Of a stretch of DNA of 34,257 bases, positions 4,400 through 33,548 are shown one piece after another. The DNA is taken from the NCBI GenBank assembly GCA_949288455.1, contig CASEKF010000054.1:1-34257 (forward strand). The letters are read 5' to 3'. This stretch comes from an uncultured bacterium. GTDB taxonomy: Bacteria > Vulcanimicrobiota > CADAWZ01. Under the pieces are notes generated by a model that saw only the letters and a program-made list of their open reading frames with translations, did not search any database and was not told the origin of the DNA. Position numbers and translations under genes: made by a program. Within the stretch, counting starts at the first letter, position 1. Every line of letters begins with the position of its first letter.

Positions 4400-6157
4400 C
4401 TATTTACTATTTTTCTTTTTTGCCGTTTCGTAGAAAAATTTCAAATATTTGGCTACCCGTTGCTTCATTTCACATCGGCTTGATAGTTCGTCAAGACCAT
4501 GAATTGACGCAACGTAGTCGGCTATAGTCACCTCGGGATCGACTTTAATTCCGGCCAGTTGAGTAACTCTAGGCCCGGCAAAGCAGATTAACGCGTTTTT
4601 CTCGCCGATATTGATAGTGCCCTGAGTCGCGAAACTTGCTAAGGCTCCTCCGGTACTAGGATGAGTCATAATAGAAATAAAAGGAAGACCGGCTTCTTTC
4701 AGTATTCCCAGAGCCATATTAGTCTTAGCCATCTGCATAAGCGATAGAGTTCCTTCTTGCATTCTTGCTCCGCCTGACGAGCATACGGATATTAAAGGAA
4801 GCCTATTCGTTATGCAGAACTGTACCGCGCGATAAAATTTTTCTCCCATTGCCGAGCCCATTGAACCGCCTATAAAATTAAAATTAGAAATTACTAGCAC
4901 CGCTCTATATTTGTCAATTTTTGCTACTCCCGTTGAAATAGATTCTCCGCATCCGGTCTTGATTTCCATGGAATTTAAAGTCTCGAGATATTCAGCCGTA
5001 AGGTCTTCTTTATTAAGCATTTCTCTCGCGGTAATTTTAGAATTAAATTCCGTAAACGTATTTCTATCGCAGAGAATGTCGATCCATTCGTCTGACATTA
5101 AGCTTTCGCCTTTGCCACATATAGGACATGATTTGAAATTTTTTTGATATTCGTCAAGCGGGATATAATTTCCGCAACCTCTGCCGTCTTTTTTTTCACA
5201 GAGAACATGAGGTTTAGTGATATCCATATTTTTACTTTCAAGATAAGCCCGTTCAAGCGAATCGGAAAGCTCTTGAGCTTCTATGATTTTTACGCGCGAT
5301 TTTCTGCTGACTTGCGCGGTGTCGCTTCTATGAAAGAAATCGACCACTTGAGAAAAAAAACTCTGTTTTTTCAGGACTCCGTAACCTAAGACTTTTTTTC
5401 TTCTTCTTTCAATAATTCTGTCGATATCGTATTTCGTTACTTCTAATACGGCTTTTGTCAGAGCCGTTTTTATCGACCTAATATATCCTGAATAATCTTC
5501 TATGTCGTTAGGCTCTTTTACTATTTCGTCGCATATGCCAAAATAGATCATATCTTTACTAGTAGGACGCAGCAGAGTTAAGGATTCTTCTATTTTTGTA
5601 TTGTCTCTAAAAATAATGGCTCCGCAGCTTTCCGGAGCTATCGTATAATACATCGCGTCTTCCATGATGAGTCGCTTGTCGGTTACTTGAAGAGCTAACG
5701 CTCCTCCGGAACCTCCTTCGCCTAAAATTAAAGAAATAGTCGGCGTTTTTACTTCGCAGAATTTGCTTATACAATCTGATATAGCCCAAGATTGAAGTCG
5801 TTTAGCGGATTCTGAGCTTGGATCGGCCCCTGGAGTGTCTACAAAAGTTATTACCGGGAGATTATTAGTTTCCGCATATTCTAATAATTCTACGACTTGC
5901 CTGTATCCTTCCGGCTTCATCATTCCAAAGTTAACCTTATTTGCATATGCTAAATCGTTGCCTTTTGGCTTCTCTTGTCCCATAAAAAGTATTTCTTTTT
6001 TATTTATAAATCCTGAACCGCTTATGAGAGCCTGATCTTTTGATTTAAAATAAGTTATGTCGCTGAATATGCTGTTTATAACGTCAGAACTTCGTATTCT
6101 CTGAGGATTCCTGGTTTTTTCTTTAAAAATTTCAGTTATTGTTTTTTTTTGTTTCAT
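4400..6157 (-). CDS. Fused acetyl-CoA carboxylase carboxyltransferase, alpha part then beta part (AccA-AccD)
   Basis: A single 585-residue protein carrying both halves of the carboxyltransferase that moves CO2 from carboxybiotin to acetyl-CoA in fatty-acid synthesis. Residues about 40-275 are AccA-like (FVDTPGADP at 105-113, LGEGGSGGALAL at 145-156). Residues about 315-585 are AccD-like, with a zinc ribbon (C320, C328, C344, C347), GGSMGSAMGEKFYRA, SSGGARMQEGTLS and HPSTGGALASFA. The first zinc cysteine is five residues further from the second than in the usual CxxC. The AccA helix-rich N-terminus is shortened. The 36-residue junction is charged. Order is alpha before beta. accB and accC are not in the window. 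An AAGG ribosome-binding site precedes the ATG. A propionyl-CoA-type carboxyltransferase is less likely given the AccD zinc ribbon. Confidence 0.93.
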   Translation of the reverse strand: MKQKKTITEIFKEKTRNPQRIRSSDVINSIFSDITYFKSKDQALISGSGFINKKEILFMGQEKPKGNDLAYANKVNFGMMKPEGYRQVVELLEYAETNNLPVITFVDTPGADPSSESAKRLQSWAISDCISKFCEVKTPTISLILGEGGSGGALALQVTDKRLIMEDAMYYTIAPESCGAIIFRDNTKIEESLTLLRPTSKDMIYFGICDEIVKEPNDIEDYSGYIRSIKTALTKAVLEVTKYDIDRIIERRRKKVLGYGVLKKQSFFSQVVDFFHRSDTAQVSRKSRVKIIEAQELSDSLERAYLESKNMDITKPHVLCEKKDGRGCGNYIPLDEYQKNFKSCPICGKGESLMSDEWIDILCDRNTFTEFNSKITAREMLNKEDLTAEYLETLNSMEIKTGCGESISTGVAKIDKYRAVLVISNFNFIGGSMGSAMGEKFYRAVQFCITNRLPLISVCSSGGARMQEGTLSLMQMAKTNMALGILKEAGLPFISIMTHPSTGGALASFATQGTINIGEKNALICFAGPRVTQLAGIKVDPEVTIADYVASIHGLDELSSRCEMKQRVAKYLKFFYETAKKKNSK

Positions 6158-11869: not shown

Positions 11870-14800
11870 ATGGACTTTAAAAACTTCGTTCTTGAAGTTT
11901 TAAATGGCAAAAATAAGGGCAATATATTTAATTTAGAGGCAGATAAGATAACTGTCGGACGAAGGTTAGCTCCCGGAGAAAAAAAGAAGGATTGGATTCT
12001 TATCGACGATTTGTCTCTTGCTAGAATACATGCGTTTCTTTTGTGGGACGCAAGTAAAATGCTATATAAAATAGTATTAAAAACTTCGAAATTTGAATCT
12101 GTCTTAATTAATGGAAAACCGGTCAAAGAAGGATATCTTTATCATCTTGATAAGGTTCAGCTTGGGAACGTTATTTGTCGCGTTTGGGATGGTCCAGTAG
12201 ATAAAAATATTGTTTTTGATGATGAAAAAGACGATATTTTGCTTGAAGACGAAGATCTTGATAAACCTCCTTCATATTCTCCGCCTAAAAGCTCAAATCA
12301 ATCGCTGCACGCTGATAAAGTATATGAAGATTTAACAGAACGAGCGACAGTAAATCATGGCTTTGTAGAGCATAACGGTCATAATAGTAATATTAAAGAT
12401 AAAAAAAAATTTTTGCAAAAAAATGAAGATTTAGAGATAAAGCCTTTTTCATTTTTTACCGCTAATGAAGAGAATGCGTCAGAGAGTTTTTCCGCTTCTC
12501 AGAATGATAAAAAACATAAAATTTTAGGCGGACGCTCTGATGAATCAAAAGATAAATTAACGGAGTTTAAGCCGATCGATTTGACTTCGGCTTTTAAAAA
12601 TGAACCTGCAAACGTTCTGCAAAAATCTATTTCTTCTAAGTTTAATTTAGAACGTTCGGCTATTGACGACATTCGTTCCAAACGCCGGGTTGAAGACGAT
12701 TCCGGTTATTCCTCTTCTTCTCGTTCCAAACGCCGGGTTGAAGACGATTCCGATTATTCCTCTTCTTCTCGTTCCAAACGCCGGGTTGAAGATAATTCCG
12801 ATTCTTCTTCTTCTCGTTCCAAACGCCGGGTTGAAGACGATTCCGATTATTCTTCTTCTCGTTCCAATCGTCGGGTTGAAGACGATTCCGATCTAAATTC
12901 TGCTCGATTTATGAGAGAAAGCAGATTTATGTCAGCTTTGTCTATTCAGGGAACTACTAGCGATAGCGGGATTGTTAAAGCTAGAGTAAAGTCGAAACAA
13001 GATCTTAATAAGAAAGACGATTTAGTTTTATCGCTTCCGGCCTTTGAACATAAAACGCCGGAAGAAGAGATTGACACGGAACCTTTTGACGTTGTCTTAC
13101 CATATATTGAAGAACATAATTCGAATAAAATAAAATTGAATTCTAATTTGTCAAGAGATTTTATAGGTAAGGAACTGTTTCCAAAACAAGAGGAGCCGGA
13201 TTCCTCTCTTTTGCCGGAATCAATTTTAGAACATAATTCTGCTAAAGAAACTTTATTGTCTGGATATCAAAATTTTCTTACGTCTTCAGTAAATGATAAT
13301 AAAAATTTTGACATAATACAATATAGACGAGTTCCGTTAAAACATAAGCCGTCTTCCGTAAAAAAAATCGATAAAATTCAATTGCCTTTAAAGCGGAGCA
13401 AAGAGAATAAGAGTCCTTTATCTTCTCAATCCGAATCTTTGACCTTATCTAATGAGACTAGTTTGCCTTCTAACGAGTCTGTTTCGAATTTAATTAGAGA
13501 TTTATCATCAAGTTCTTCGCTTACGGCAAATTCTTTTGAAAATACGTCTCTCTCAGAAGATTTTATATCAGCTAAAACAACTGTAAAACAAATACAAGAA
13601 GTTAAAAAACAGGATATTCATACTGAGAATGAGAAATCGGATAATAAAGCGAATATTGTAAATTTTTTGGGGAGCAAAGAGCCTTCTGTTCTTCCTTCTT
13701 TTACCGGTAAAAAGAAACGGGTAGAATCTGAGACTTTTGACAAAGACGCTGCTTCGGCTAATTTTGGTTTGTCATTGCCTGAATTAATTATTCCTGAGGC
13801 AACTGCGTCGATAAACGATTCTTCTAGTATAGATCTTCCTACTTTGGAGCAAGATTCTTCCTCAAAACCTACCGAGCCTGTTTCCGCATCATTGGCCGAT
13901 TCTGCTCCATCCTTATTTTCGAATCTTCCTTCTTTAAAGAAAGAACTTTCTTCAAAGCCTACCGAGCCTGTTTCCGCATCATTGGCCGATTCTGCTCCAT
14001 CCTTATTTTCGAATCTTCCTACTTTGGAGCAAGATTCTTCCTCAAAGCCTTCCGAGCCTGTTTCCGCATCATTGGCCGATTCTGCTCCATCCTTTGAACA
14101 ATTGAACGATACTCATATTAAAGACGATAAACATTTTGATTTACAGCCTTTGGTAGATTCGCATGATTCTAAAGATAGCGATAATATGGCTACCAATTTT
14201 AAAAGTAAACCTTTAAAAAATTTGAATCAAAGATTTGGAACTTTAACTAAAGAGAGCAAAAGAAATGAGAAAAACGCAGAAAAACAAGAATCTTTATCTT
14301 CAGAAGATTTAAATTTCGAAAATAAGAAAAAATCGAGGTCTTTTCGTTCCGGAAATATTAGATTTGCAGGGGATAATGTATTTCGTAAAACAGTAATGTC
14401 GTCTGCCGGTTTTACCAATGCAGTTGATTCTGATTTGAAAATTTCAGACGACGAGATGGAAAAATTTTTAGAAGTTATTGAGCAGAGCCGAGAAGAAGAT
14501 ACTTTACCATCTGAAGATTCTGTCTTTGACGTTTTAAATAATGCTAAATCCGCGTCCGTTTCAGATACAGGAAAAGCCAATCTGTTTGGTCCGGCTAGTT
14601 CAATAGATTTACCTTTGGTCAATTACAAGATAAATCCTAAGCAAAAACAGCGACAAAAAACAACGGAAAAAACTTATGATATAGACAAAAAAATCTCGTC
14701 TAAAAGTGAAGCGTGTTTGGACGACGGTAAAAACATAAAGACCGATACCGATACGAATATCAAGGATGATATAAATTTTAAAGCTCCTTCAGATCCGGTT

Positions 14801-15433
14801 ACGTCAATATCTTTACCTCCTTTGGAAGAAAGCGGGGGCGAAGTCGTAGAGTCGTCTAAATCTGAAGGAAAACCGAAAAAACCTTATTTTGGAGCTTTTG
14901 ACATTTTAATCGACGATTATCAAGAGCCGATTTCTTCATCTGATTCGATAGACGCTAGTTCCAAGATTAACGATTCTTTGTTCGATTGGTCTTATGAAGT
15001 TTCTTCAGATAAAAAGTCCCTATCCTCGGCGGTTGGTGAACCGTCTGATAAAAAAGACGCCATTTCCGTATTTTTTGGCGAACCTGATATTCCGGATGTG
15101 GAACTTCCCGATTTTAGCGATTGGACATTGCATTTTGTAAAAATGCCCGGCATTAATAATTTTGAATACTTTGATCTTAATAAAGATGAAATTATTATTG
15201 GCAGAAGCGGGGCAGTTGATCTTACCTTGAAAGATATAGCTCTAGCAGATAGGCATGTTAAGCTTTATATGGCCGACGGACAGTTGTATCTTCAAAAGTT
15301 AGATAGAAAAAAGCAAATTTTTATCAATGGAAGCCCTTTAATATCTTCCGCAAGCAGATTATTAAAGGAGGGAGATAGAATTCAGCTGAGCGATTTAACT
15401 GTTTTTGAAGTGAAAAGAAAGACGAAAGGATAA
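11870..15433 (+). CDS. Two-FHA-domain protein with long repeat-rich linker
   Basis: 1187 residues, with an FHA domain at each end and an apparently disordered Ser/Asp/Lys-rich linker of about 970 residues. The N-terminal FHA spans about 5-108 (GR at 30-31, NG at 81-82). The C-terminal FHA spans about 1084-1185 (GR at 1111-1112, NG at 1153-1154). FHA domains normally bind phosphothreonine through an SRxH motif. Here the N-terminal copy reads ARIH (51-54) and the C-terminal one ADRH (1126-1129), so the contacting serine is Ala in both. The linker holds five copies of a 15-16-residue RSKRRVEDDSDYSSS unit (269-346), three copies of a 30-residue unit (about 656-741) and recurrent xLPx motifs. No membrane segment or catalytic domain is seen. 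It is probably a cytoplasmic scaffold. The next gene starts 10 bases downstream. Confidence 0.88.
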   Translation: MDFKNFVLEVLNGKNKGNIFNLEADKITVGRRLAPGEKKKDWILIDDLSLARIHAFLLWDASKMLYKIVLKTSKFESVLINGKPVKEGYLYHLDKVQLGNVICRVWDGPVDKNIVFDDEKDDILLEDEDLDKPPSYSPPKSSNQSLHADKVYEDLTERATVNHGFVEHNGHNSNIKDKKKFLQKNEDLEIKPFSFFTANEENASESFSASQNDKKHKILGGRSDESKDKLTEFKPIDLTSAFKNEPANVLQKSISSKFNLERSAIDDIRSKRRVEDDSGYSSSSRSKRRVEDDSDYSSSSRSKRRVEDNSDSSSSRSKRRVEDDSDYSSSRSNRRVEDDSDLNSARFMRESRFMSALSIQGTTSDSGIVKARVKSKQDLNKKDDLVLSLPAFEHKTPEEEIDTEPFDVVLPYIEEHNSNKIKLNSNLSRDFIGKELFPKQEEPDSSLLPESILEHNSAKETLLSGYQNFLTSSVNDNKNFDIIQYRRVPLKHKPSSVKKIDKIQLPLKRSKENKSPLSSQSESLTLSNETSLPSNESVSNLIRDLSSSSSLTANSFENTSLSEDFISAKTTVKQIQEVKKQDIHTENEKSDNKANIVNFLGSKEPSVLPSFTGKKKRVESETFDKDAASANFGLSLPELIIPEATASINDSSSIDLPTLEQDSSSKPTEPVSASLADSAPSLFSNLPSLKKELSSKPTEPVSASLADSAPSLFSNLPTLEQDSSSKPSEPVSASLADSAPSFEQLNDTHIKDDKHFDLQPLVDSHDSKDSDNMATNFKSKPLKNLNQRFGTLTKESKRNEKNAEKQESLSSEDLNFENKKKSRSFRSGNIRFAGDNVFRKTVMSSAGFTNAVDSDLKISDDEMEKFLEVIEQSREEDTLPSEDSVFDVLNNAKSASVSDTGKANLFGPASSIDLPLVNYKINPKQKQRQKTTEKTYDIDKKISSKSEACLDDGKNIKTDTDTNIKDDINFKAPSDPVTSISLPPLEESGGEVVESSKSEGKPKKPYFGAFDILIDDYQEPISSSDSIDASSKINDSLFDWSYEVSSDKKSLSSAVGEPSDKKDAISVFFGEPDIPDVELPDFSDWTLHFVKMPGINNFEYFDLNKDEIIIGRSGAVDLTLKDIALADRHVKLYMADGQLYLQKLDRKKQIFINGSPLISSASRLLKEGDRIQLSDLTVFEVKRKTKG
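12674..12906 (+). repeat. Five tandem 45-48-bp coding repeats in the FHA protein
   Basis: Units start at 12674, 12722, 12770, 12815 and 12860, each opening CGTTCCAAACGCCGGGTTGA with few substitutions (the fifth has CAATCGTC in place of CAAACGCC). Units 1-2 are 48 bp and units 3-4 are 45 bp, so length varies by whole codons in the serine run. Encoded unit: RSKRRVEDDSDYSSS. High nucleotide identity points to recent expansion. Confidence 0.93.
13835..14092 (+). repeat. Three tandem 90-bp coding repeats in the FHA protein
   Basis: Units start at 13835, 13925 and 14015 (exactly 90 bp apart). Each contains an almost identical block encoding EPVSASLADSAPS, preceded by LPTLEQD or LPSLKKE. Units 1 and 3 are closer to each other in their first third than to unit 2. 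The frame is preserved. Confidence 0.92.
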
Positions 15434-25116: not shown

Positions 25117-27177
25117 TTACTTTTTCTTTTCTTGCTCTTTTTCACATCGCTTTAAATATTCGTATATCTCTGTGAACCCTTCTAGTTGCGCAAGTTCGGC
25201 TGGCGTATATCCCGAATCTGTTTTTACGTTGAGATCTGCCCCGGATGTAACTAATAGTTTTACTATATTAAGATGTCCTTGTTGTACCGCGCTATGTAGA
25301 GGAGTCTTATTAGTGATCGATTTTGCGTTTACGTCCGCCCCATGTTCAATAAGGAGTCGGCATATTTTTATACAGCCTCTGTTGGCCGCTTTAGCCAGAG
25401 GACGCCATTTGTCGATATATGCGGCGAAATTTGGATCTGCTCCGGCTCTAAGAAGTATTTCAGCGCTTGCATGCTTGCCTTGAGAAGCGGCTAAATAAAG
25501 CGGAGTTATGCCTTCTAACGTTGGAATGTTTATATTCTCTCTTTCTCTTATGCACTGTTTAAGTATTTTAGTGTTATCCCAGAATACCGCAAAATGTGGT
25601 ATTGTCCATTCTGCAAAAGCATATTTGCCTATCATATTACGGTATGAAGAATATACTTCTTTTATTGTTTTTAAATCATTTGTTTGGAACGCTTGCTTTA
25701 TATCCTTGAAAAATATATAGTCTAAAAAAATGTTATTTAAAGTATATAAATTAGAAAAATCAGTTATATTTAGTATATAATCCGCAATATGAGGAGATTG
25801 CATGATAAGCGAATGGCCTATAAGATTATTCCAATTCATTCTTACTTTTAAATATTCGAATATTGCGGAGATTCTTGCTCTTTGATGCTTGTTATATTCT
25901 TGATATGCGTCGGCTAAGTCAAGTTCGCTTGCTGTTTGATTTTTAAATTTATTTTGAGTTTCTACTAAATATTCCCAAGATACTAGAGTCTGTTCCGTAT
26001 GTATTCTTATAGTTTCGATAGAGGTATTCATAGTTTGAAATGCCGATCTTATTTCGTAAGTTCTATCTGAAATAAAAAGTTCTTGGTTTATTTTAGATTT
26101 ATTCAATTCTTCTTTTTTTATTTTTATTTCTTGCCAATCCTCAGGGTTTAGAAAGTTATATGTGCCTGTAATGCCGAGTCTCCAATACGTATTGTGAGAA
26201 TCGTCTTCTCTTTCAAAATAAGCGGAAGCGTTGATTTTAGGGTATAGAAGAGTTTTTGAAAGCTGTGACGCATATTCGGCTTGTCGAATGGCATAATTAG
26301 TTTTGAGCCAGTCAGGAGAATACTTGGAAGCATAGTTTATTATTTCTTCATTGATCTCTTGATCTGTCATCTGTTGTTTTAGCTTTTTTATAAGGTGCAT
26401 TGAAACGTCGTAAGCTTCTATCGTTTCGTATGTTAGAAAGACAGAATCCTTAGGAACCGATATGTTTGTAATTCTGCTTAGATTAAATATAGCGGTATTA
26501 TATTGATTTTCAGCTTCTATATATTCTCTATCAAGATTATGTATAAATACTTCAATTCTTGTAAGTTTCTCGGAGTCTTTTTGCGCAACTTCTTTTAAAA
26601 AATTTTCCGCATAATATTTAAGCGATTTTATATGTTTTTGTATCCTTTTAGCTTTCAGTAGATCTATATAAATATTATATGTGTCTCTTTCTACATTTAG
26701 ACTTTGCTGAAGTAAGTTTAACGTTTCATAGTAAATTTTTGTTCTCTCTAAATCGGAATTGTATTTATTTGCTCCAAAATATATGAGAGGTTGAATTATC
26801 TCGAAAAAATAATTGTTGTACTGCTGAGTTCCTAAGTCATGTTGACGATATGTCTTATTAGAAAAATTGAATTCTCCGCTTCCTTTTGGAAAATATCCCA
26901 TAAAAGCTTTTTGATATCTGCTCTTTTGGATTTTAACGTTTGATTCTTCTATTTTAATAGAAAGATTATTGTTTATAGCGTCGTCTAAGGACGATTCTAA
27001 GGTTTGAGTATGGTTACATTCTTCATTGGAGTCTTCAATATATATGAGTTTATTTTCAGAGCGGTTTTCTATTTGCCGTTTTTTGTTTTGAGCTTCCTCA
27101 GAGCCGAAAATGGCGACGAATGGTAAAGATATAGCGATATATAAAATCAGGGTTAGAAAAATTGCAGTTTTATTCAT
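25117..27177 (-). CDS. TolC-type outer-membrane efflux protein fused to ankyrin repeats
   Basis: 686 residues. A signal peptide covers about 1-25. Residues about 60-460 resemble the OEP/TolC family: coiled helices with duplicated halves, strand-like stretches SGEFNFSNKTY and NASAYFERED, and QNKFKNQTASELDLADAYQEYNKHQ near the end. The family forms trimeric channels across the outer membrane. Residues about 525-680 are ankyrin repeats, four clear (starting near 556, 590, 623 and 656, with TPLHSAVQQGHLNIVKLLV as the best) plus a degenerate one before. In a TolC topology this tail would be periplasmic. The reading frame is continuous. It is the last gene of the operon, 26 bases after Nif3, and convergent with the heparinase-like gene. 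Confidence 0.85.
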   Translation of the reverse strand: MNKTAIFLTLILYIAISLPFVAIFGSEEAQNKKRQIENRSENKLIYIEDSNEECNHTQTLESSLDDAINNNLSIKIEESNVKIQKSRYQKAFMGYFPKGSGEFNFSNKTYRQHDLGTQQYNNYFFEIIQPLIYFGANKYNSDLERTKIYYETLNLLQQSLNVERDTYNIYIDLLKAKRIQKHIKSLKYYAENFLKEVAQKDSEKLTRIEVFIHNLDREYIEAENQYNTAIFNLSRITNISVPKDSVFLTYETIEAYDVSMHLIKKLKQQMTDQEINEEIINYASKYSPDWLKTNYAIRQAEYASQLSKTLLYPKINASAYFEREDDSHNTYWRLGITGTYNFLNPEDWQEIKIKKEELNKSKINQELFISDRTYEIRSAFQTMNTSIETIRIHTEQTLVSWEYLVETQNKFKNQTASELDLADAYQEYNKHQRARISAIFEYLKVRMNWNNLIGHSLIMQSPHIADYILNITDFSNLYTLNNIFLDYIFFKDIKQAFQTNDLKTIKEVYSSYRNMIGKYAFAEWTIPHFAVFWDNTKILKQCIRERENINIPTLEGITPLYLAASQGKHASAEILLRAGADPNFAAYIDKWRPLAKAANRGCIKICRLLIEHGADVNAKSITNKTPLHSAVQQGHLNIVKLLVTSGADLNVKTDSGYTPAELAQLEGFTEIYEYLKRCEKEQEKKK

Positions 27178-27203: not shown

Positions 27204-27977
27204 TTAAAGACCTGTTGGAAGATCAAAAAATTCTGTTTCTATATCGTATTTTTTCTTTAAGTAGTTCATTAAAGCTTTTATGCCTGTAGTTTCCGTGGCG
27301 TAATGTCCTGAACATAACATTGAAGAGCCGCATTCCAAAGCTTGATGATAATAAGCATGCGACGTTTCTCCGGTGATAAATAGATCTAATTTTTCTTCCG
27401 CCGCTTCGCTTATGCTTGAAGCCGAACTTCCGGAAATAATGCCTACAGTTTGAATTTTTTTATTTTTACAAGGCGAGATCATAACGCTATCGGTATTTAA
27501 AGCTTTATCTATTATCCTTTTTATGTCTAGAATAGTCGCGGCTGTTTTAAGACGTCCTTTAACTCCGATAGCGTGTCCTTTATAAATATGGAACCCTCCT
27601 TCGATTGTAAAGTCGGGTATTAAAGAAGCTATGATTTTGTTGTTCCCTATCTCAGGATGAATATCAAGCGGAAGATGCGCAGCGTAAAGAGATATATCTG
27701 CGGAAAACATTGTTTTAATTCTTGTCTTTGTCGCTCCTGCGATTGGAAGAGGAGCTTTCCAAATCATTCCATGGTGACAAATCAACATTTGACATTGCGA
27801 TTTTATCGCCGCTTCTATAGACGGCATACAAAAATCTACTGAAAACCCTATTTTTGATATTTCGCCGCAGCCTTCTATTTGTAATCCGTTTAACGCATAA
27901 TCTTCTATTGAAGCTACGTTTAAATATTCGTTTAAAAATAATATTAACTCGTCTCGGTTAATTTTTTTTCGCGTCAT
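27204..27977 (-). CDS. Nif3-like dinuclear metal-centre protein (DUF34/YbgI family)
   Basis: 257 residues, usual for the single-domain family. The metal ligands are in place: CHHG (H68, H69), AAHLPLDIHPEIGNN with H101 and D105, and the C-terminal SGHYATETTG with His and Glu. A glycine/serine block IISGSSASSISEA also matches. The family is widely conserved and was formerly annotated GTP cyclohydrolase I type 2, but its biochemical role is unsettled. The start at 27977 overlaps the end of the preceding gene by 20 bases, supporting translational coupling. Confidence 0.93.
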   Translation of the reverse strand: MTRKKINRDELILFLNEYLNVASIEDYALNGLQIEGCGEISKIGFSVDFCMPSIEAAIKSQCQMLICHHGMIWKAPLPIAGATKTRIKTMFSADISLYAAHLPLDIHPEIGNNKIIASLIPDFTIEGGFHIYKGHAIGVKGRLKTAATILDIKRIIDKALNTDSVMISPCKNKKIQTVGIISGSSASSISEAAEEKLDLFITGETSHAYYHQALECGSSMLCSGHYATETTGIKALMNYLKKKYDIETEFFDLPTGL

Positions 27978-28665
27978 TTTTTTCGCCTTCTTTACGTTGC
28001 ATTATATGAAGAGAGCCTTTATCGTCGTTTTTTGGAAGCGTTTTCAAGTATTCGTTTAATTCAAATTGATAAAATTCAGCTTTTTCGCTTTGACCAATAT
28101 GTTCCAGAGAATCAATTATTCTGGAGTTTACCCAAACTACCTTCATAAAATCATCGTAAGAAGGAGTTTTTTGTTCTCTTAATTCTCGAGCTTTTAAAAG
28201 ATAGGGCAGAGCTTCCGAGTAATTTTTAGCCATATAAAGCAAAAAACCGTATTCCCAGTTTAATTCAAACGAATTTGGATTGTAAGTTAAGCCTTCTTTT
28301 AAAAAATTCATGCTTTCTTTATACATTCGTAAGTTTACGGCCAGATGATACGCTCCAAAGTCATAGGCTTGTACAAAATGAGGATCCAGAAGCGTGATAA
28401 GACGAATTAAAGGCATGATAGGCTCGTTTATATTTAAGGGTTTGCCTGCAAATTCATATTCATGATGATAATAATCTGTTTTCATCCAAAGAAGAGCCGC
28501 GGCAGTATATCTCAATTCTCCTAATATATCTAAAAGCGCGGAAGCAGAGTAGTCGACGGTCGTTTTGGCTTTGAAATTTTTGTCTGCGTAATCGTCTAAT
28601 AACGTAGCCGAGAAAATTATTACAATTAAAAGCGCGGCAAGTAAAGCTATGGTTTTTGTCTTCAT
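27958..28665 (-). CDS. Membrane-anchored TPR-like protein
   Basis: 235 residues. An N-terminal hydrophobic segment (about 5-22) acts as an uncleaved anchor or signal. It is followed by helical repeats: FVQAYDFGAYHLAVNLRMY, SMNFLKEGLTYNPNSFELNW, YGFLLYMAKNYSEALPYL and SRIIDSLEHIGQSEKAEFYQ, giving about three TPR-like pairs in the periplasm. It is encoded seven bases after the small membrane protein and directly after an ABC-2 exporter pair, so a partner role in that exporter is plausible (inference). No enzymatic motif. Confidence 0.8.
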   Translation of the reverse strand: MKTKTIALLAALLIVIIFSATLLDDYADKNFKAKTTVDYSASALLDILGELRYTAAALLWMKTDYYHHEYEFAGKPLNINEPIMPLIRLITLLDPHFVQAYDFGAYHLAVNLRMYKESMNFLKEGLTYNPNSFELNWEYGFLLYMAKNYSEALPYLLKARELREQKTPSYDDFMKVVWVNSRIIDSLEHIGQSEKAEFYQFELNEYLKTLPKNDDKGSLHIMQRKEGEKNDAKKN

Positions 28666-28672
28666 TTCACCG

Positions 28673-29059
28673 TTATTCTTTCTTTGTTGTTTTCTTTAAC
28701 TTAGGTTTGTATATTCTAAATAACGAAGCCGTTATAAAAATAGCCCAGACCGCGTAGCTTTGTTTTTGCATAGTTTTAATAGTTTCGGGAGTCCTCCATG
28801 CCGTATGAAAAAATTCGTCGCATTCTAGGCATTCTTCGCCTTCTTCATGGCTATGCCCTTTTTGGCCGAACGCCGCTTGAACTTCATACTGTAAATCGTC
28901 GTCTATATAATTGTTTCCGTTGTTGCCGGAAACGTTATGTTGACTGTCATTTTGTACGGAGACGTTGGAAATAGGCTCCGCTTTTGATAAAGGAGCTGAT
29001 AAAATTGGTTGCGACGAGATTATAATTATAGCTATAATTATAAGATGAAATTTTATCAT
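28673..29059 (-). CDS. Small membrane protein with His/Cys motif, function unknown
   Basis: 128 residues from ATG 29059. It has a signal peptide or anchor (IIIAIIIISS, cleavage after LSA possible), a polar middle and a C-terminal membrane helix (YAVWAIFITASLFRIY) followed by a lysine-rich tail. The segment HSHEEGEECLECDEFFH combines His, Glu and CxxC and could bind metal. A TTG at 29089 would overlap the permease gene by 20 bases and would spoil the signal-peptide pattern. It lies between the ABC-2 permease and the TPR-like protein. Confidence 0.68.
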   Translation of the reverse strand: MIKFHLIIIAIIIISSQPILSAPLSKAEPISNVSVQNDSQHNVSGNNGNNYIDDDLQYEVQAAFGQKGHSHEEGEECLECDEFFHTAWRTPETIKTMQKQSYAVWAIFITASLFRIYKPKLKKTTKKE

Positions 29060-29069
29060 AAAAAATATA

Positions 29070-29843
29070 TCACAGATCCTTTCTGTCAAAAGTGAAGGCA
29101 GCTAAGATGATAATGACGGCTATATAGGCGAGACCGTATATTAAGCACCATAAAAAATAACCGGGAAGCAAATTATGAGAATGAACTATAGCGTCTTTTA
29201 TATTAAAACAGTCGAATTTCGGAAGAATCAGTTTTAAAATAACTATTCCGTTGATTAAAGTTTCAGGAAGTTTCCCTGACAAGTATTTTACGTAAGGACT
29301 GGATATGCCGCCTACGATAAATAAAAAAATGGTCGTCGATAACGCTAGGGGGTATGAAGTTATCAGTGAGAAAAGAAGCATTATAGCTCCCAATATGCCG
29401 CATTGGAGTATATTTAAGACTATAGCTTGCGGCACCATCCAGTTCCAGCCGTCTCCGTAGATAAATAAAACTATCATTAGTTCTGCGCCTAGAATTATTA
29501 AATTTGCCGCTACAAGAAGCATCATTCCTATATATTTTCCCAAAATGTAGATTCCGCGCGTTATCGGTTGGGTAACTATCGGGTAAATCGTTTTATGTTC
29601 TATTTCATTTGGAATTACGTTTAAAAATATACTCAAAGTGAAAATTATTCCAAACAAAGATATTCCTGATAACGAAATATCTTTCATTATAGGCAATTGA
29701 GCTCCTAAGTTAAACGAAGTGAATGATGCGGAGAAGGCTATTAATAAAAATGAAAAAAATAAAAGAATATACAATATTTTTTTTCTGATATTTTCTTCAA
29801 CGGCTAGTCTTGCTATTATTAAAACTTGCTGTAAAGTGTTCAT
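29070..29843 (-). CDS. ABC-2-type transporter permease
   Basis: 257 residues with six hydrophobic segments. The topology is that of ABC-2 permeases: N-terminal helix after RLAVEENIRKK, then IIFTLSIFLNVIPNEIEHKTIYPIVTQP, with the conserved amphipathic E-x-x-x-T-I-x-P-I-V-T-Q-P element. Its ATG overlaps the ATPase stop by four bases, so the two form an exporter pair. The group resembles NosY/GldF-type permeases. Substrate unknown. Confidence 0.88.
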   Translation of the reverse strand: MNTLQQVLIIARLAVEENIRKKILYILLFFSFLLIAFSASFTSFNLGAQLPIMKDISLSGISLFGIIFTLSIFLNVIPNEIEHKTIYPIVTQPITRGIYILGKYIGMMLLVAANLIILGAELMIVLFIYGDGWNWMVPQAIVLNILQCGILGAIMLLFSLITSYPLALSTTIFLFIVGGISSPYVKYLSGKLPETLINGIVILKLILPKFDCFNIKDAIVHSHNLLPGYFLWCLIYGLAYIAVIIILAAFTFDRKDL

Positions 29844-30808
29844 ATCGTTACCTTTTCTATTTTTGTCGATAGATTTTCAGAGTTTGCTTTTTCAGGCATA
29901 ATTAGATTAAAGAAAGTTTCTTCTAAATCGGAATAACCCGGGAATAAGTCCGTTATTGTTTCTTCTGCTTCGGCTATCATTTTAAAAACTTCAGAAAGAT
30001 TTTCCTGCGCCGTAGTTAATCTTAAGAATCCGTCTTTTTCTTCTCGAATCTTAAATCCTTTTTGCGTAAGGATAGAATTGATCTTTTGATTTTTATTTGT
30101 AAAAAGCAATGTATATACTTTTTTATCATAATTAAGCAGATCCGCAAGTTTTTTTATACAGACCATTTTCCCTTTGTTTATTACGCCTATCGTATCGCAT
30201 ACTGTTTCTACTTCCGATAGGTGATGGGAACTTAAAAAAATCGTAATGCCTTTATTTTTTAATCGCTTTATTATGTCTTTTACTTCTTTCCTTCCTATTG
30301 GATCTAATCCGCTAGTAGGCTCGTCTAGAATAAGAAGCTTTGGATTGCCTATAAGCGAAAGGGCTATGCCAAATCTTTGCAGCATACCTTTTGAAAAACT
30401 TTTTAGTTTTTGCTTTTTTCGATCGTCTAAACCTACAAGTTTTAAGTTTATATCAATTCTATCTTTTATTTCGTTCCTAGGTATGAGTTTTAGCGAGGCA
30501 TAATAACGCAAAAGCGTTTCAGCTTCCATAAAGGTATAATAATAAGCTATTTCAGAGAGATAGCCGACTTCTTTTTTAGATTCGGGGCTGCCGGCTTCTT
30601 TTCCCATTATGGAAACTTTGCCTGAAGTAGGGGAAATAAGCCCCATAAATAATTTAATTGCAGTAGTCTTACCTGCTCCGTTTGGACCTATGAATCCAAA
30701 GACGTTTCCTTCTTCAATTTGTAAATTGAGATTTTCAAGAGCATATATTTTTTTTCTCTCGGAAGAATAAATTTTTGAAAGTTGTTCCGTTTCTATTGCA
30801 AGAGCCAT
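29840..30808 (-). CDS. ABC-2-type transporter ATPase
   Basis: 322 residues. Walker A GPNGAGKTT, Q-loop VGYLSE, a signature-like FSKGMLQR, Walker B LLILDEPTSGLD and H-loop SSHHLSE. The C-terminal extension of about 100 residues ending in ETFFNLI is typical of ABC-2 exporter ATPases (CcmA/NatA/NosF-like). The usual LSGGQ is replaced by FSKGM, which is common in this subfamily. GGAG precedes the ATG. It pairs with the overlapping permease gene. Confidence 0.93.
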   Translation of the reverse strand: MALAIETEQLSKIYSSERKKIYALENLNLQIEEGNVFGFIGPNGAGKTTAIKLFMGLISPTSGKVSIMGKEAGSPESKKEVGYLSEIAYYYTFMEAETLLRYYASLKLIPRNEIKDRIDINLKLVGLDDRKKQKLKSFSKGMLQRFGIALSLIGNPKLLILDEPTSGLDPIGRKEVKDIIKRLKNKGITIFLSSHHLSEVETVCDTIGVINKGKMVCIKKLADLLNYDKKVYTLLFTNKNQKINSILTQKGFKIREEKDGFLRLTTAQENLSEVFKMIAEAEETITDLFPGYSDLEETFFNLIMPEKANSENLSTKIEKVTI

Positions 30809-30825
30809 GTCATATATCTCCGTAA

Positions 30826-31698
30826 TTATTCAAATTTGCATATAGGCTCGGCAAAATTTTCCGTAATTTCTCCCTGAGCCATTCTTATAAGTTGGGCATC
30901 CAACTCTTTAAGACTTTGTTCCGGGATGTAACTAAATTCTATCCAGCCTTTTTTTTCACCCGATTCTTTCGTTTGTTCGCATAGGAAAGACGCTCCTACC
31001 GCAATAGGCTTTTCTCTTTGGTTAAAGAAAATTTTCATTAGAAATTCATTTTCCCTATCCGTAGCTATCGGAGTTTTTGACGAATATTCGAGTCCTTTAT
31101 TAGATAAAACAGTAATACAAGGAAAATAGGTATTCCATTCTTCATTTTCTTCGCTATATATTTGAACGTTGAAAAATTTTTTAGGATATAGCGTTCTTCT
31201 TTTAGTTCTAGCGCTAATAGCGTAATTTCCGGCTATGCAAGTGATTATTATGCCGGCTTCAGGGGATAGATATTCGTACGAAAGAATATATTTTTTCAAG
31301 CTGTTTTGGCCTATTTTTTTTTCTTTAACTTTTACCGTGCATTCTCCAAAGTCGCCGTTATACAGGAATTTAATGGAAATAGGGAGATTAAAGGGAAGTT
31401 CGGTTTTAGTTATTATAGTAAATTCATCGTCTCCTATTTCGTCAATATAAACGTATTCTTTAGCGGGATATTCGCTGCCTGAAAAAAATTCTATTGGAAA
31501 AGTCTGTTTTAAAGTTATTCTTTGCGGCAGAAGTATTTCTATATCTTGATTATCTAAAGGCATTTCAGATGAATTTTCGTTATTGTCTCGCATATCGGCG
31601 GTTGATTCTTGTTCGACTGAGTTTTTTTGCGAAGTTCCAGGGTCCTCATTGTCTTGATTGTCTTGCCGGTTTTCCGATATATTGTCTGCCGAACACAT
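30826..31698 (-). CDS. PilZ-like domain protein
   Basis: 290 residues. About 50 N-terminal residues are acidic and Asn/Gln-rich. A beta-rich domain (about 55-160) resembles a YcgR-N/PilZN-type barrel. Residues about 163-250 resemble PilZ: R164-T-K-R-R168 fits the RxxxR c-di-GMP motif, and V-L-S-N-K-G-L (about 196-203) aligns with (D/N)xSxxG but has Val in place of the Asp/Asn. No membrane helix. If functional it would be a cytoplasmic c-di-GMP receptor, but the missing acidic residue makes binding uncertain. AAGGAG precedes the ATG. The assignment rests on motif pattern only. Confidence 0.6.
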   Translation of the reverse strand: MCSADNISENRQDNQDNEDPGTSQKNSVEQESTADMRDNNENSSEMPLDNQDIEILLPQRITLKQTFPIEFFSGSEYPAKEYVYIDEIGDDEFTIITKTELPFNLPISIKFLYNGDFGECTVKVKEKKIGQNSLKKYILSYEYLSPEAGIIITCIAGNYAISARTKRRTLYPKKFFNVQIYSEENEEWNTYFPCITVLSNKGLEYSSKTPIATDRENEFLMKIFFNQREKPIAVGASFLCEQTKESGEKKGWIEFSYIPEQSLKELDAQLIRMAQGEITENFAEPICKFE

Positions 31699-31713
31699 AT
31701 TATTGTCTCCTTT

Positions 31714-32802
31714 TCAGTTCATTTTCTCTTTAATTTCTTCTCTTAATTTTTGCGTATATATTTTCGAAGGACCAAAAGCGTTCTTTTTGGGAGAGTATGC
31801 GTCCGGATATTCGCTGTCGTTTAAATCCATATATTCTTGGGCCGTTTTGTTACCCTCGGCCGCTTCTATTTGAGAGTAAATTTTATCCGGCGATATTTCA
31901 AATTTTTTACATAATTCAAATAAAAGATCGGTAAGGCTTTCTTTTTGAATTTCATTATTTTCTAATTGTTGCGACGATACGCCTATTAACTCTATTGTGA
32001 ATGCCTTATGTTCTAATCCTTCGCATCCTCGTGTTTTAAGATTGAGCGGCATAGTTTGTATTATCATACCGTTTATATCTATAACGAAATGCGACGAAAG
32101 GTGTCCGTACATGCCGCCGTCGTCTCCTTCGTCATATACGGAGCCCAGCGTATACATATTTAGCAGAGTTCCCAACGACGGCGCTTTTAAACAACGAATC
32201 GTTATCAGAGACGGATTGTCTAAGTTTGTCGAAGGATCGTCATAATGTACTTCAAAGTATTCTGAATATTCTCCCTCCCATTCTTCATAAGGAAGTAGTT
32301 TTTCCATGATTCTAAGAGTTCTGGGAAGAGTATAGTCTATTTCCCCTTCGGCATCTTTGTCAAGTTTTGAGTCATTTGTCCGACTATAACCTTTTATTAC
32401 GATATTTACGCTACGGTCGTCGCCGTTTATTCTTACTAAAGGCTCGGGTTCGACCATAGAAGAAGCGTCGGTTTGAGGAGTCGAGTCAGGCGAAGGCGAT
32501 TGTGCTTGTTTTGCGTTAGAATCTGTAGAAATATTTTTTTTGTCAAAGCTTTCTTTTTTCTTTTTAAGAGAAGAGGATGGAAAATTAATCGTTTTTGCTT
32601 TTTGTTTTAATCGTTCTACGTCTTTATTTGTTATAACTTTAGAGTTTGTATCGCTATATGTTGTCCGTTTCAAAGCTTTTATGTTTTCGTTGGTTATCGT
32701 TTCTCTTCCGTATATCGACGCATATAAAGTCAACGCGAAAATAACGCTTGCCGTAAACATAAAAAATATGTAGTTAAAGTTGTATTTTTTGTTTGTCGTC
32801 AT
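31714..32802 (-). CDS. Membrane-anchored amidase_2/PGRP-like protein, probably inactive
   Basis: 362 residues. A membrane anchor spans about 11-30, then a charged Ser/Thr/Pro-rich stalk to about 150. Residues about 185-330 follow N-acetylmuramoyl-L-alanine amidase type 2: SSHFVIDINGMIIQTMP (236-252) and KAFTIELIGVS (266-276) are well conserved. The first zinc histidine expected before this block falls at R203-C204, and the last (usual HxxxA...K) reads Q311-I-E-A-A-E-G-N-K319. It may thus bind peptidoglycan without cleaving it. It would sit at the inner membrane facing the periplasm. It lies 33 bases downstream of the SMR gene. Confidence 0.72.
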   Translation of the reverse strand: MTTNKKYNFNYIFFMFTASVIFALTLYASIYGRETITNENIKALKRTTYSDTNSKVITNKDVERLKQKAKTINFPSSSLKKKKESFDKKNISTDSNAKQAQSPSPDSTPQTDASSMVEPEPLVRINGDDRSVNIVIKGYSRTNDSKLDKDAEGEIDYTLPRTLRIMEKLLPYEEWEGEYSEYFEVHYDDPSTNLDNPSLITIRCLKAPSLGTLLNMYTLGSVYDEGDDGGMYGHLSSHFVIDINGMIIQTMPLNLKTRGCEGLEHKAFTIELIGVSSQQLENNEIQKESLTDLLFELCKKFEISPDKIYSQIEAAEGNKTAQEYMDLNDSEYPDAYSPKKNAFGPSKIYTQKLREEIKEKMN

Positions 32803-32835
32803 TCCAATAGCTCTTTCCTTTACTGATATTCTCTA

Positions 32836-33186
32836 TTATGAATGCGCAGTTCCGATTAAAGCTACTCCGGCTATGATAAATATTATCCCTATTATTTTAT
32901 TTCTATTTATTTTTTCTTTCAAAAAAATTTTGGCAAGTATTATAGTCCATATATAACTTAACGAAACGAATGGATATAGAACCGTTATATCGGCGCTTTT
33001 TACCGCGATTAAGAAAGGTATTGTCGAAATAAAAAAACAAAAGCCTCCCATCCAAAATTTAATATTAAGAAATAATCCTAGTCCGGAACCTTTACCGTCT
33101 AACGAAGCGTATTTAAAAAGTAACGATCCCCAAGCGCTTATCATTGTGCTAAGAATTACTAAAAGTACGGCGTAGAGATACGTCAT
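32836..33186 (-). CDS. SMR/EamA-type small membrane transporter, subunit 2
   Basis: 116 residues with four transmembrane helices. Motifs include ISAWGSLLFKYASL in the first helix and VLYPFVSLSYIWTIILAKIFLKEKI leading to the last helix. This is the small multidrug resistance/EamA half-transporter type, and resembles ArnE/ArnF-like lipid-carrier flippase subunits more than EmrE, as the EmrE membrane glutamate is not evident. The start overlaps the upstream partner gene by four bases. Confidence 0.82.
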   Translation of the reverse strand: MTYLYAVLLVILSTMISAWGSLLFKYASLDGKGSGLGLFLNIKFWMGGFCFFISTIPFLIAVKSADITVLYPFVSLSYIWTIILAKIFLKEKINRNKIIGIIFIIAGVALIGTAHS

Positions 33187-33548
33187 TTATTTTGAGTCTC
33201 CGTTCCATATCCTATAATTGTTACTCCGGTAATTATCAAAACTGTAGCTATCCATTTGTAAATATGTATAGTTTCCTGTAAAAAATAAGAAGCGAATAAG
33301 TTCACCCATATATAAGAAAGAGACAGCAGAGGATATATAGTAGATAAATCGTTATCTTTCATAGACGTAGTCATTAGAATAGAACTTATAATATACAGAA
33401 TTAATCCTAACAAAACATAGAAGTTTGAGGCTATCGCGGCAAGATTCATTTCCAAGGCCGGAGCGCCTTTTTTGTATAATATTTGAGCAAAGCCTATAAT
33501 TATAGTCGTTATGACCATAAGTAAGATAGAACGTTTTGTTTTAGACAT
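33183..33548 (-). CDS. SMR/EamA-type small membrane transporter, subunit 1
   Basis: 121 residues with four transmembrane helices and a layout parallel to the next gene: GFAQILYKKGAPAL in the first helix and TIYPLLSLSYIWVNLFASYFLQETI before the last. The shared YPxxSLSYIW block shows both genes derive from a duplication. They probably form a heterodimer, as ArnE-ArnF does. It starts two bases after the stop of the preceding gene with no clear ribosome-binding site, so translation is probably coupled. Confidence 0.82.
   Translation of the reverse strand: MSKTKRSILLMVITTIIIGFAQILYKKGAPALEMNLAAIASNFYVLLGLILYIISSILMTTSMKDNDLSTIYPLLSLSYIWVNLFASYFLQETIHIYKWIATVLIITGVTIIGYGTETQNK

What the first reader, a model, noticed from the sequence alone, without database searches (positions are those of the whole stretch)
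25117..27177. TolC-type channel protein with a C-terminal ankyrin-repeat array
One uninterrupted frame joins a signal peptide, a full-length OEP/TolC-like region (about 60-460) and four to five ankyrin repeats (about 525-680). Ankyrin arrays are normally intracellular adaptors. In TolC topology both termini are periplasmic, so this would put a protein-binding platform at the base of an export channel. It ends an operon that also encodes an ABC-2 exporter pair. I know of no described family with this order.
Basis: partly seen in the sequence, partly recalled or inferred. Interest (0 to 1): 0.72.

Follow-up and report, generated by a model that had tools for sequence, protein, structure and literature searches.

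The report
TolC-type channel with periplasmic ankyrin domain
This bacterium, and at least three of its relatives, make an outer-membrane export channel whose tail is a built-in protein-binding domain; the fusion is real, old and so far undescribed, but what it binds is unknown.

Summary
One 686-codon frame (minus strand, 25117-27177) encodes a signal peptide, both halves of a TolC/OEP protein, a short linker and about six ankyrin repeats. It is not a sequencing or assembly error: five further full-length proteins with the same order occur in three other genomes of the phylum (4 of 149 genomes held), at 20-33% identity. Their OEP parts form one clade (support 100/100) apart from 26 ordinary OEPs, and no member found lacks ankyrin repeats. 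The fusion probably arose once and was kept.

Exported ankyrin proteins are common in this phylum, so a periplasmic ankyrin domain is less odd than implied. The link to the ABC-2 pair is local: the cassette exists elsewhere without the fusion, and other fusion genes stand alone; only NIF3 adjacency recurs, in one genome.

New here: the window protein has lost both pump-tip glycines that all 26 ordinary OEPs and four fused proteins keep, and its first tip loop is six residues shorter. Docking of a normal adaptor is therefore doubtful.

Best reading: a TolC-type trimer carrying ankyrin domains near its periplasmic belt to recruit a partner. Partner and structure remain unshown.

The parts
25117..27177 (-). 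OEP-ankyrin fusion gene, 686 codons
   Evidence: same fusion in five homologues
27100..27177 (-). putative signal peptide, about residues 1-26
   Evidence: hydrophobic N-terminus read by eye; homologues have comparable N-termini
26464..27000 (-). first OEP half
   Evidence: PF02321 positions 1-187, 36.7 bits
26563..26601 (-). first tip loop (H3/H4), residues 193-205: shortened by six residues, tip glycine (TolC G147) replaced by Ala198
25816..26349 (-). second OEP half
   Evidence: PF02321 positions 2-187, 64.5 bits
25924..25956 (-). second tip loop (H7/H8), residues 408-418: tip glycine (TolC G365) replaced by Gln414
25696..25809 (-). linker, residues 457-494, just after the clade-invariant G454 and S456 and containing invariant P462
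   Evidence: invariant in all six fused proteins
25129..25695 (-). ankyrin array, about residues 495-683, roughly six repeats including degenerate caps
27204..27977 (-). DUF34/NIF3 gene directly upstream; the only neighbour also found next to the fusion in another genome (G001)
27958..30808 (-). TPR/TM protein, 138-aa protein, ABC-2 permease and ABC ATPase: a cassette conserved in the phylum, elsewhere without the fusion beside it

Best explanation
It is an outer membrane factor (TolC superfamily) of a distinct clade in which a formerly separate exported ankyrin-repeat domain became fixed to the C-terminus. After Sec export and outer-membrane assembly it should form a trimeric beta/alpha-barrel. 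The three C-termini, and so the three ankyrin domains, should sit around the equatorial belt in the periplasm. There they would most likely bind and hold a specific periplasmic or envelope partner, helping to choose which machine or cargo uses the channel. Shown: the domains, the one-frame fusion, the single clade, the conservation, and signal-peptide-like N-termini. Inferred from known OMFs: trimer, barrel, periplasmic position. Inferred only: partner binding and its role. In the window protein the usual adaptor-docking tips are altered, so the ankyrin belt may matter more for docking than the tips do.
For: Both OEP halves and the ankyrin repeats are above Pfam cut-offs. Six proteins share the order, in four genomes from three families. 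The OEP parts are one clade, 100/100, against 26 ordinary OEPs, and none found lacks ankyrin: below the six fused proteins the OEP profile finds only ordinary OEPs. Ankyrin identity between fused proteins (26-47%) is higher than OEP identity (19-34%), so the domain is kept. The ankyrin domains of G000, G001 and G004_C3 score the other fused ones (except G004_C54) above all standalone ones. Exported ankyrin proteins are frequent in the phylum. The organism is diderm: Omp85 and other OEPs are present. Published: the OMF equatorial domain and C-terminal tail govern partner recruitment (OprM, AatA; PMC8277102), and E. coli lipoprotein YbjP binds TolC between the equatorial domain and the membrane (PMC13082787). 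Periplasmic AnkB-type proteins act by binding another protein (PMC10294975).
Against: No usable structure model was obtained (pLDDT 34 and 40), so trimer, barrel and ankyrin placement are untested. No partner gene travels with the fusion across genomes. Distribution is sparse, 4 of 149 genomes. Higher ankyrin identity partly reflects the strong repeat consensus. The ankyrin parts of G012 and G004_C54 are as close or nearly as close to standalone ones.
Confidence: 0.6

Rival explanations
1. The OEP part no longer acts as an export duct. In the window lineage it mainly anchors and displays the ankyrin domains in the periplasm, for example to hold an enzyme or scaffold at the outer membrane.
For: Both tip glycines are lost in the window protein and the second in G001, with six-residue shortening of the first tip loop in both. 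Changing the equivalent glycines to alanine abolished MdsABC pump function (PMC4069162). No HlyD-type adaptor gene in the window.
Against: Four other fused proteins keep both glycines. Both OEP repeats remain full length. Loss of tip docking does not show loss of transport.
Confidence: 0.2
2. The fusion works as the outer-membrane exit of the ABC-2 exporter encoded in the same operon, with the ankyrin or TPR protein replacing an adaptor.
For: Same strand, tight spacing or overlaps from 30808 to 25117. NIF3 lies directly upstream of the fusion in G001 too, where the contig ends. No adaptor gene in the operon.
Against: The same cassette is complete in G002 with no fusion in that genome. In G004 and G012 the fusion genes and the ABC-2 gene lie on different contigs. 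The neighbours of those fusion genes are unrelated.
Confidence: 0.13
3. The ankyrin domain is an autonomous periplasmic AnkB-like helper (for example stabilising an enzyme such as catalase) that is merely tethered to an OMF, with no role in transport.
For: Standalone exported ankyrin proteins are common in these genomes, and AnkB-type proteins promote catalase activity (PMC10294975).
Against: All members of the OEP clade found keep the tether, and in three of them the fused ankyrin domains are closer to each other than to standalone ones. No catalase-like neighbour was seen.
Confidence: 0.12
4. Assembly or sequencing artefact joining two genes.
For: The window is from a 70-contig draft genome.
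Against: The same fusion occurs in five other proteins in three separately assembled genomes.
Confidence: 0.01

Closest known systems
TolC/OprM outer membrane factors (OEP, PF02321)
   Same: Two full OEP repeats, signal-peptide-like N-terminus; best solved-structure matches are TolC, OprM, CusC and kin
   Different: About 220 extra C-terminal residues with ankyrin repeats; a separate clade; tip glycines lost in the window protein; far below the NCBIfam TolC cut-off (41.5 against 225 bits)
Bucl8 of Burkholderia (OMF plus C-terminal collagen-like region; PMC7682875)
   Same: Tandem OEP domains followed by a C-terminal binding extension
   Different: Collagen triple helix that its authors place outside the cell, in an efflux operon; the extension is not ankyrin
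AatA and OprM C-terminal extensions or tails (PMC8277102)
   Same: C-terminal region at the equatorial domain affects partner use or export
   Different: Short, not a repeat domain
TolC-YbjP (PMC13082787)
   Same: An extra protein sits at the TolC equatorial belt
   Different: Separate lipoprotein with a DUF3828 fold, not fused
AnkB-type periplasmic ankyrin proteins (PMC10294975)
   Same: Exported ankyrin repeats that bind a partner protein
   Different: Free-standing and tied to catalase

Membership tests
Outer membrane factor (TolC superfamily) | Two OEP repeats | tested here: met
   PF02321 twice over positions 1-187 and 2-187, both above cut-off
Outer membrane factor (TolC superfamily) | Sec signal peptide or lipobox | tested here: inconclusive
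   Hydrophobic N-terminus by eye in the window protein and all homologues; no predictor available
Outer membrane factor (TolC superfamily) | Trimeric beta/alpha-barrel fold | tested here: inconclusive
   Single-sequence AlphaFold2 model has pLDDT 34; homology to TolC and OprM structures only
Outer membrane factor working with a tip-docked adaptor | Conserved glycine in each periplasmic tip loop (TolC G147, G365) | tested here: not met
   Both absent in the window protein; present in 26 of 26 ordinary OEPs and both in 4 of 6 fused proteins; same result in four alignments
Tripartite ABC exporter (MacAB-TolC or type I secretion) | HlyD/MacA adaptor gene in the same operon | tested here: not met
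   HlyD_3 matches lie on contigs C15, C25, C48 and C53, none in the window
Type I secretion TolC (TIGR01844) | Score above the curated cut-off | tested here: not met
   41.5 against 225.15 bits
Ankyrin-repeat proteins | Several consecutive Ank repeats above Pfam cut-off | tested here: met
   PF12796 145 bits, PF00023 85 bits
Bucl8-type OMF | C-terminal collagen-like (GAS)n repeat | tested here: not met
   C-terminus is ankyrin repeats

The most novel reading that the evidence does not exclude
A TolC-type channel that has given up adaptor docking at its tip and instead assembles with its partner through a belt of built-in ankyrin domains, a new way of coupling an outer-membrane duct to an inner-membrane or periplasmic machine.
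Probability: 0.15. Interest if true: 0.8.

Novelty: new variant of a known kind. Interest (0 to 1): 0.5.

Why it matters
How outer membrane channels choose their partners is largely explained by tip docking of periplasmic adaptors. A clade that carries its own likely binding domain, in some members with the docking tips altered, offers a natural test of whether a channel can be recruited another way. It also shows that bacterial exported ankyrin domains can be built into an outer-membrane protein, which extends the known range of OMF architectures beyond Bucl8.

Tried and rejected
Artefact or frameshifted pair: rejected by five homologous fusions. Plasmid-borne relatives: tblastn of a homologue gave no record covering 80% of the query, and the listed best hits covered only ankyrin regions. 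Named-genome scans: two pattern scans of the GTDB collection found no relative, and alignment A1 was too diverse to scan with, so the phylum could not be named and chromosomes outside it were not surveyed; an E. coli locus was not accepted as a search centre. Structure: the window protein alone, and its C-terminal part alone, folded without alignment gave pLDDT 34 and 40. Conserved Phe532 in repeat 2 (five of six fused proteins) was considered as a binding residue, but aromatic residues are common at that position in standalone repeats too, so no weight is put on it.

Full report
The observation. The frame at 25117-27177 is open and lies on the minus strand. It starts with a signal-peptide-like stretch. 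Pfam OEP matches twice over nearly its full length, at 26464-27000 and 25816-26349, with a whole-protein E-value of 2.4e-24; Ank_2 matches with E 1e-42. A profile of the OEP part finds TolC, OprM, CusC, MtrE and SilC among solved structures. The ankyrin array begins near residue 490-495 and holds about six repeats, of which the first two and the last are degenerate.

Not an artefact. A search of 58 related genomes found full-length relatives in G001 (same family, 35% identity over residues 55-684), G004 (same order, 32%) and twice in G012 (another family, 27%). A second, more distant hit in G004 also proved to be a full fusion. A profile search of all 149 genomes held for the phylum found these six proteins and no more, in four genomes. 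All six have an N-terminal hydrophobic segment, two OEP halves, the pattern G-x-S followed by P six residues later after the last OEP helix, and ankyrin repeats. Two same-family genomes that are 97% and 89% complete lack the fusion.

One origin. With the OEP part alone as a profile, the six fused proteins score 565-625 bits and the next protein, an ordinary TolC-like OEP, 121 bits. The six were in the profile, so the gap itself is expected, but single-sequence comparisons show the same preference. In a maximum-likelihood tree of 32 OEPs the six form one side of a branch with support 100/100. Caveats: the ordinary OEPs were those closest to the fused profile plus some from the window's genome, end branches are long, and amino-acid composition varies. 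The ankyrin parts tell mostly the same story. Those of G000, G001 and G004_C3 prefer fused partners; those of G012 prefer each other but are nearly as close to standalone ankyrins of the same genome; that of G004_C54 prefers standalone ones. So exchange of the ankyrin part in some lineages is possible. Ankyrin identity between members (26-47%) exceeds OEP identity (19-34%).

Context in the cell. The genome encodes an Omp85 protein and several other OEPs, so it is diderm. Many standalone ankyrin proteins of the phylum carry signal peptides, some with lipobox-like ends. The fusion therefore probably joined two exported proteins and did not move a cytoplasmic one outside (inference).

Neighbourhood. 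The gene is the last of a tightly packed minus-strand run: ABC ATPase, ABC-2 permease, 138-aa protein, TPR/TM protein, NIF3, fusion. The same cassette from the 290-aa protein to NIF3 is complete in G002 without any fusion gene. G004 carries most of it on contig C8, preceded by the same ArnE/F-like pair and amidase, while its fusion genes lie on C3 and C54; in G012 the ABC pair is on C21 and the fusion genes on C30 and C2. Genes beside those fusion genes encode unrelated products. In G001, NIF3 fragments lie immediately upstream of the fusion, where the contig ends. Linkage to the cassette is thus at most a family-level trait and weak evidence of joint function.

Altered tips. In tripartite pumps the adaptor docks on the periplasmic tips of the channel, at a conserved glycine in each repeat (TolC G147 and G365). 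The backbone of G365 contacts AcrA (PMC5404916), and changing the equivalent glycines in MdsC to alanine abolished pump function (PMC4069162). In an alignment with E. coli TolC, all 26 ordinary OEPs and four fused proteins keep both glycines. The window protein has Ala and Gln instead. G001 keeps a glycine at or near the first site, has lost the second, and shares with the window protein a six-residue shortening of the first tip loop. Four alignment settings agree. No HlyD-type adaptor gene lies in the window. I infer that ordinary adaptor docking is weakened or absent in this family's version.

Mechanism. By homology the protein should be an outer-membrane trimer with its C-termini at the equatorial belt. 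Known OMF tails and extensions there affect partner choice (OprM, AatA; PMC8277102), and a separate lipoprotein, YbjP, binds E. coli TolC in the same zone (PMC13082787). Exported ankyrin proteins such as AnkB work with a bound partner (PMC10294975). The simplest reading is a built-in recruitment domain. The partner is unknown, and the structure was not confirmed: both AlphaFold2 jobs without alignment were uninformative.

Novelty. Literature searches for an ankyrin-bearing OMF found none; the library holds open-licence papers only. The nearest described architecture is Bucl8, an OMF with a C-terminal collagen-like region (PMC7682875). I file this as a new variant of the outer membrane factor family.

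Noticed in passing
window 27204-33548 (-); L094; L095: A conserved cassette: ArnE/F-like pair, N-acetylmuramoyl-alanine amidase-like protein, 290-aa protein without Pfam match, ABC ATPase, ABC-2 permease, 138-aa protein, TPR/TM protein, NIF3. Most of it is kept in G002 and G004; its function is unknown.
   Followed up: partly
L010, L015, L031, L050, L052, L053 and others: Many standalone ankyrin proteins in this phylum have signal peptides or lipobox-like N-termini; G004 and G012 have very many ankyrin stretches (132-270 first-look candidates).
   Followed up: partly
G001:C104:3190-3568 (L105, L106): The NIF3 homologue upstream of the G001 fusion appears split between two frames near a contig end, perhaps a frameshift or assembly error.
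   Followed up: no
window 11870-15433 (+): 1187-aa protein with a C-terminal FHA / YscD-cytoplasmic-like domain, next to a small thioredoxin-like protein.
   Followed up: no
window 4400-6157 (-): Single 585-aa protein matching both AccA and carboxyl-transferase profiles, apparently a one-chain acetyl-CoA carboxylase carboxyltransferase.
   Followed up: no
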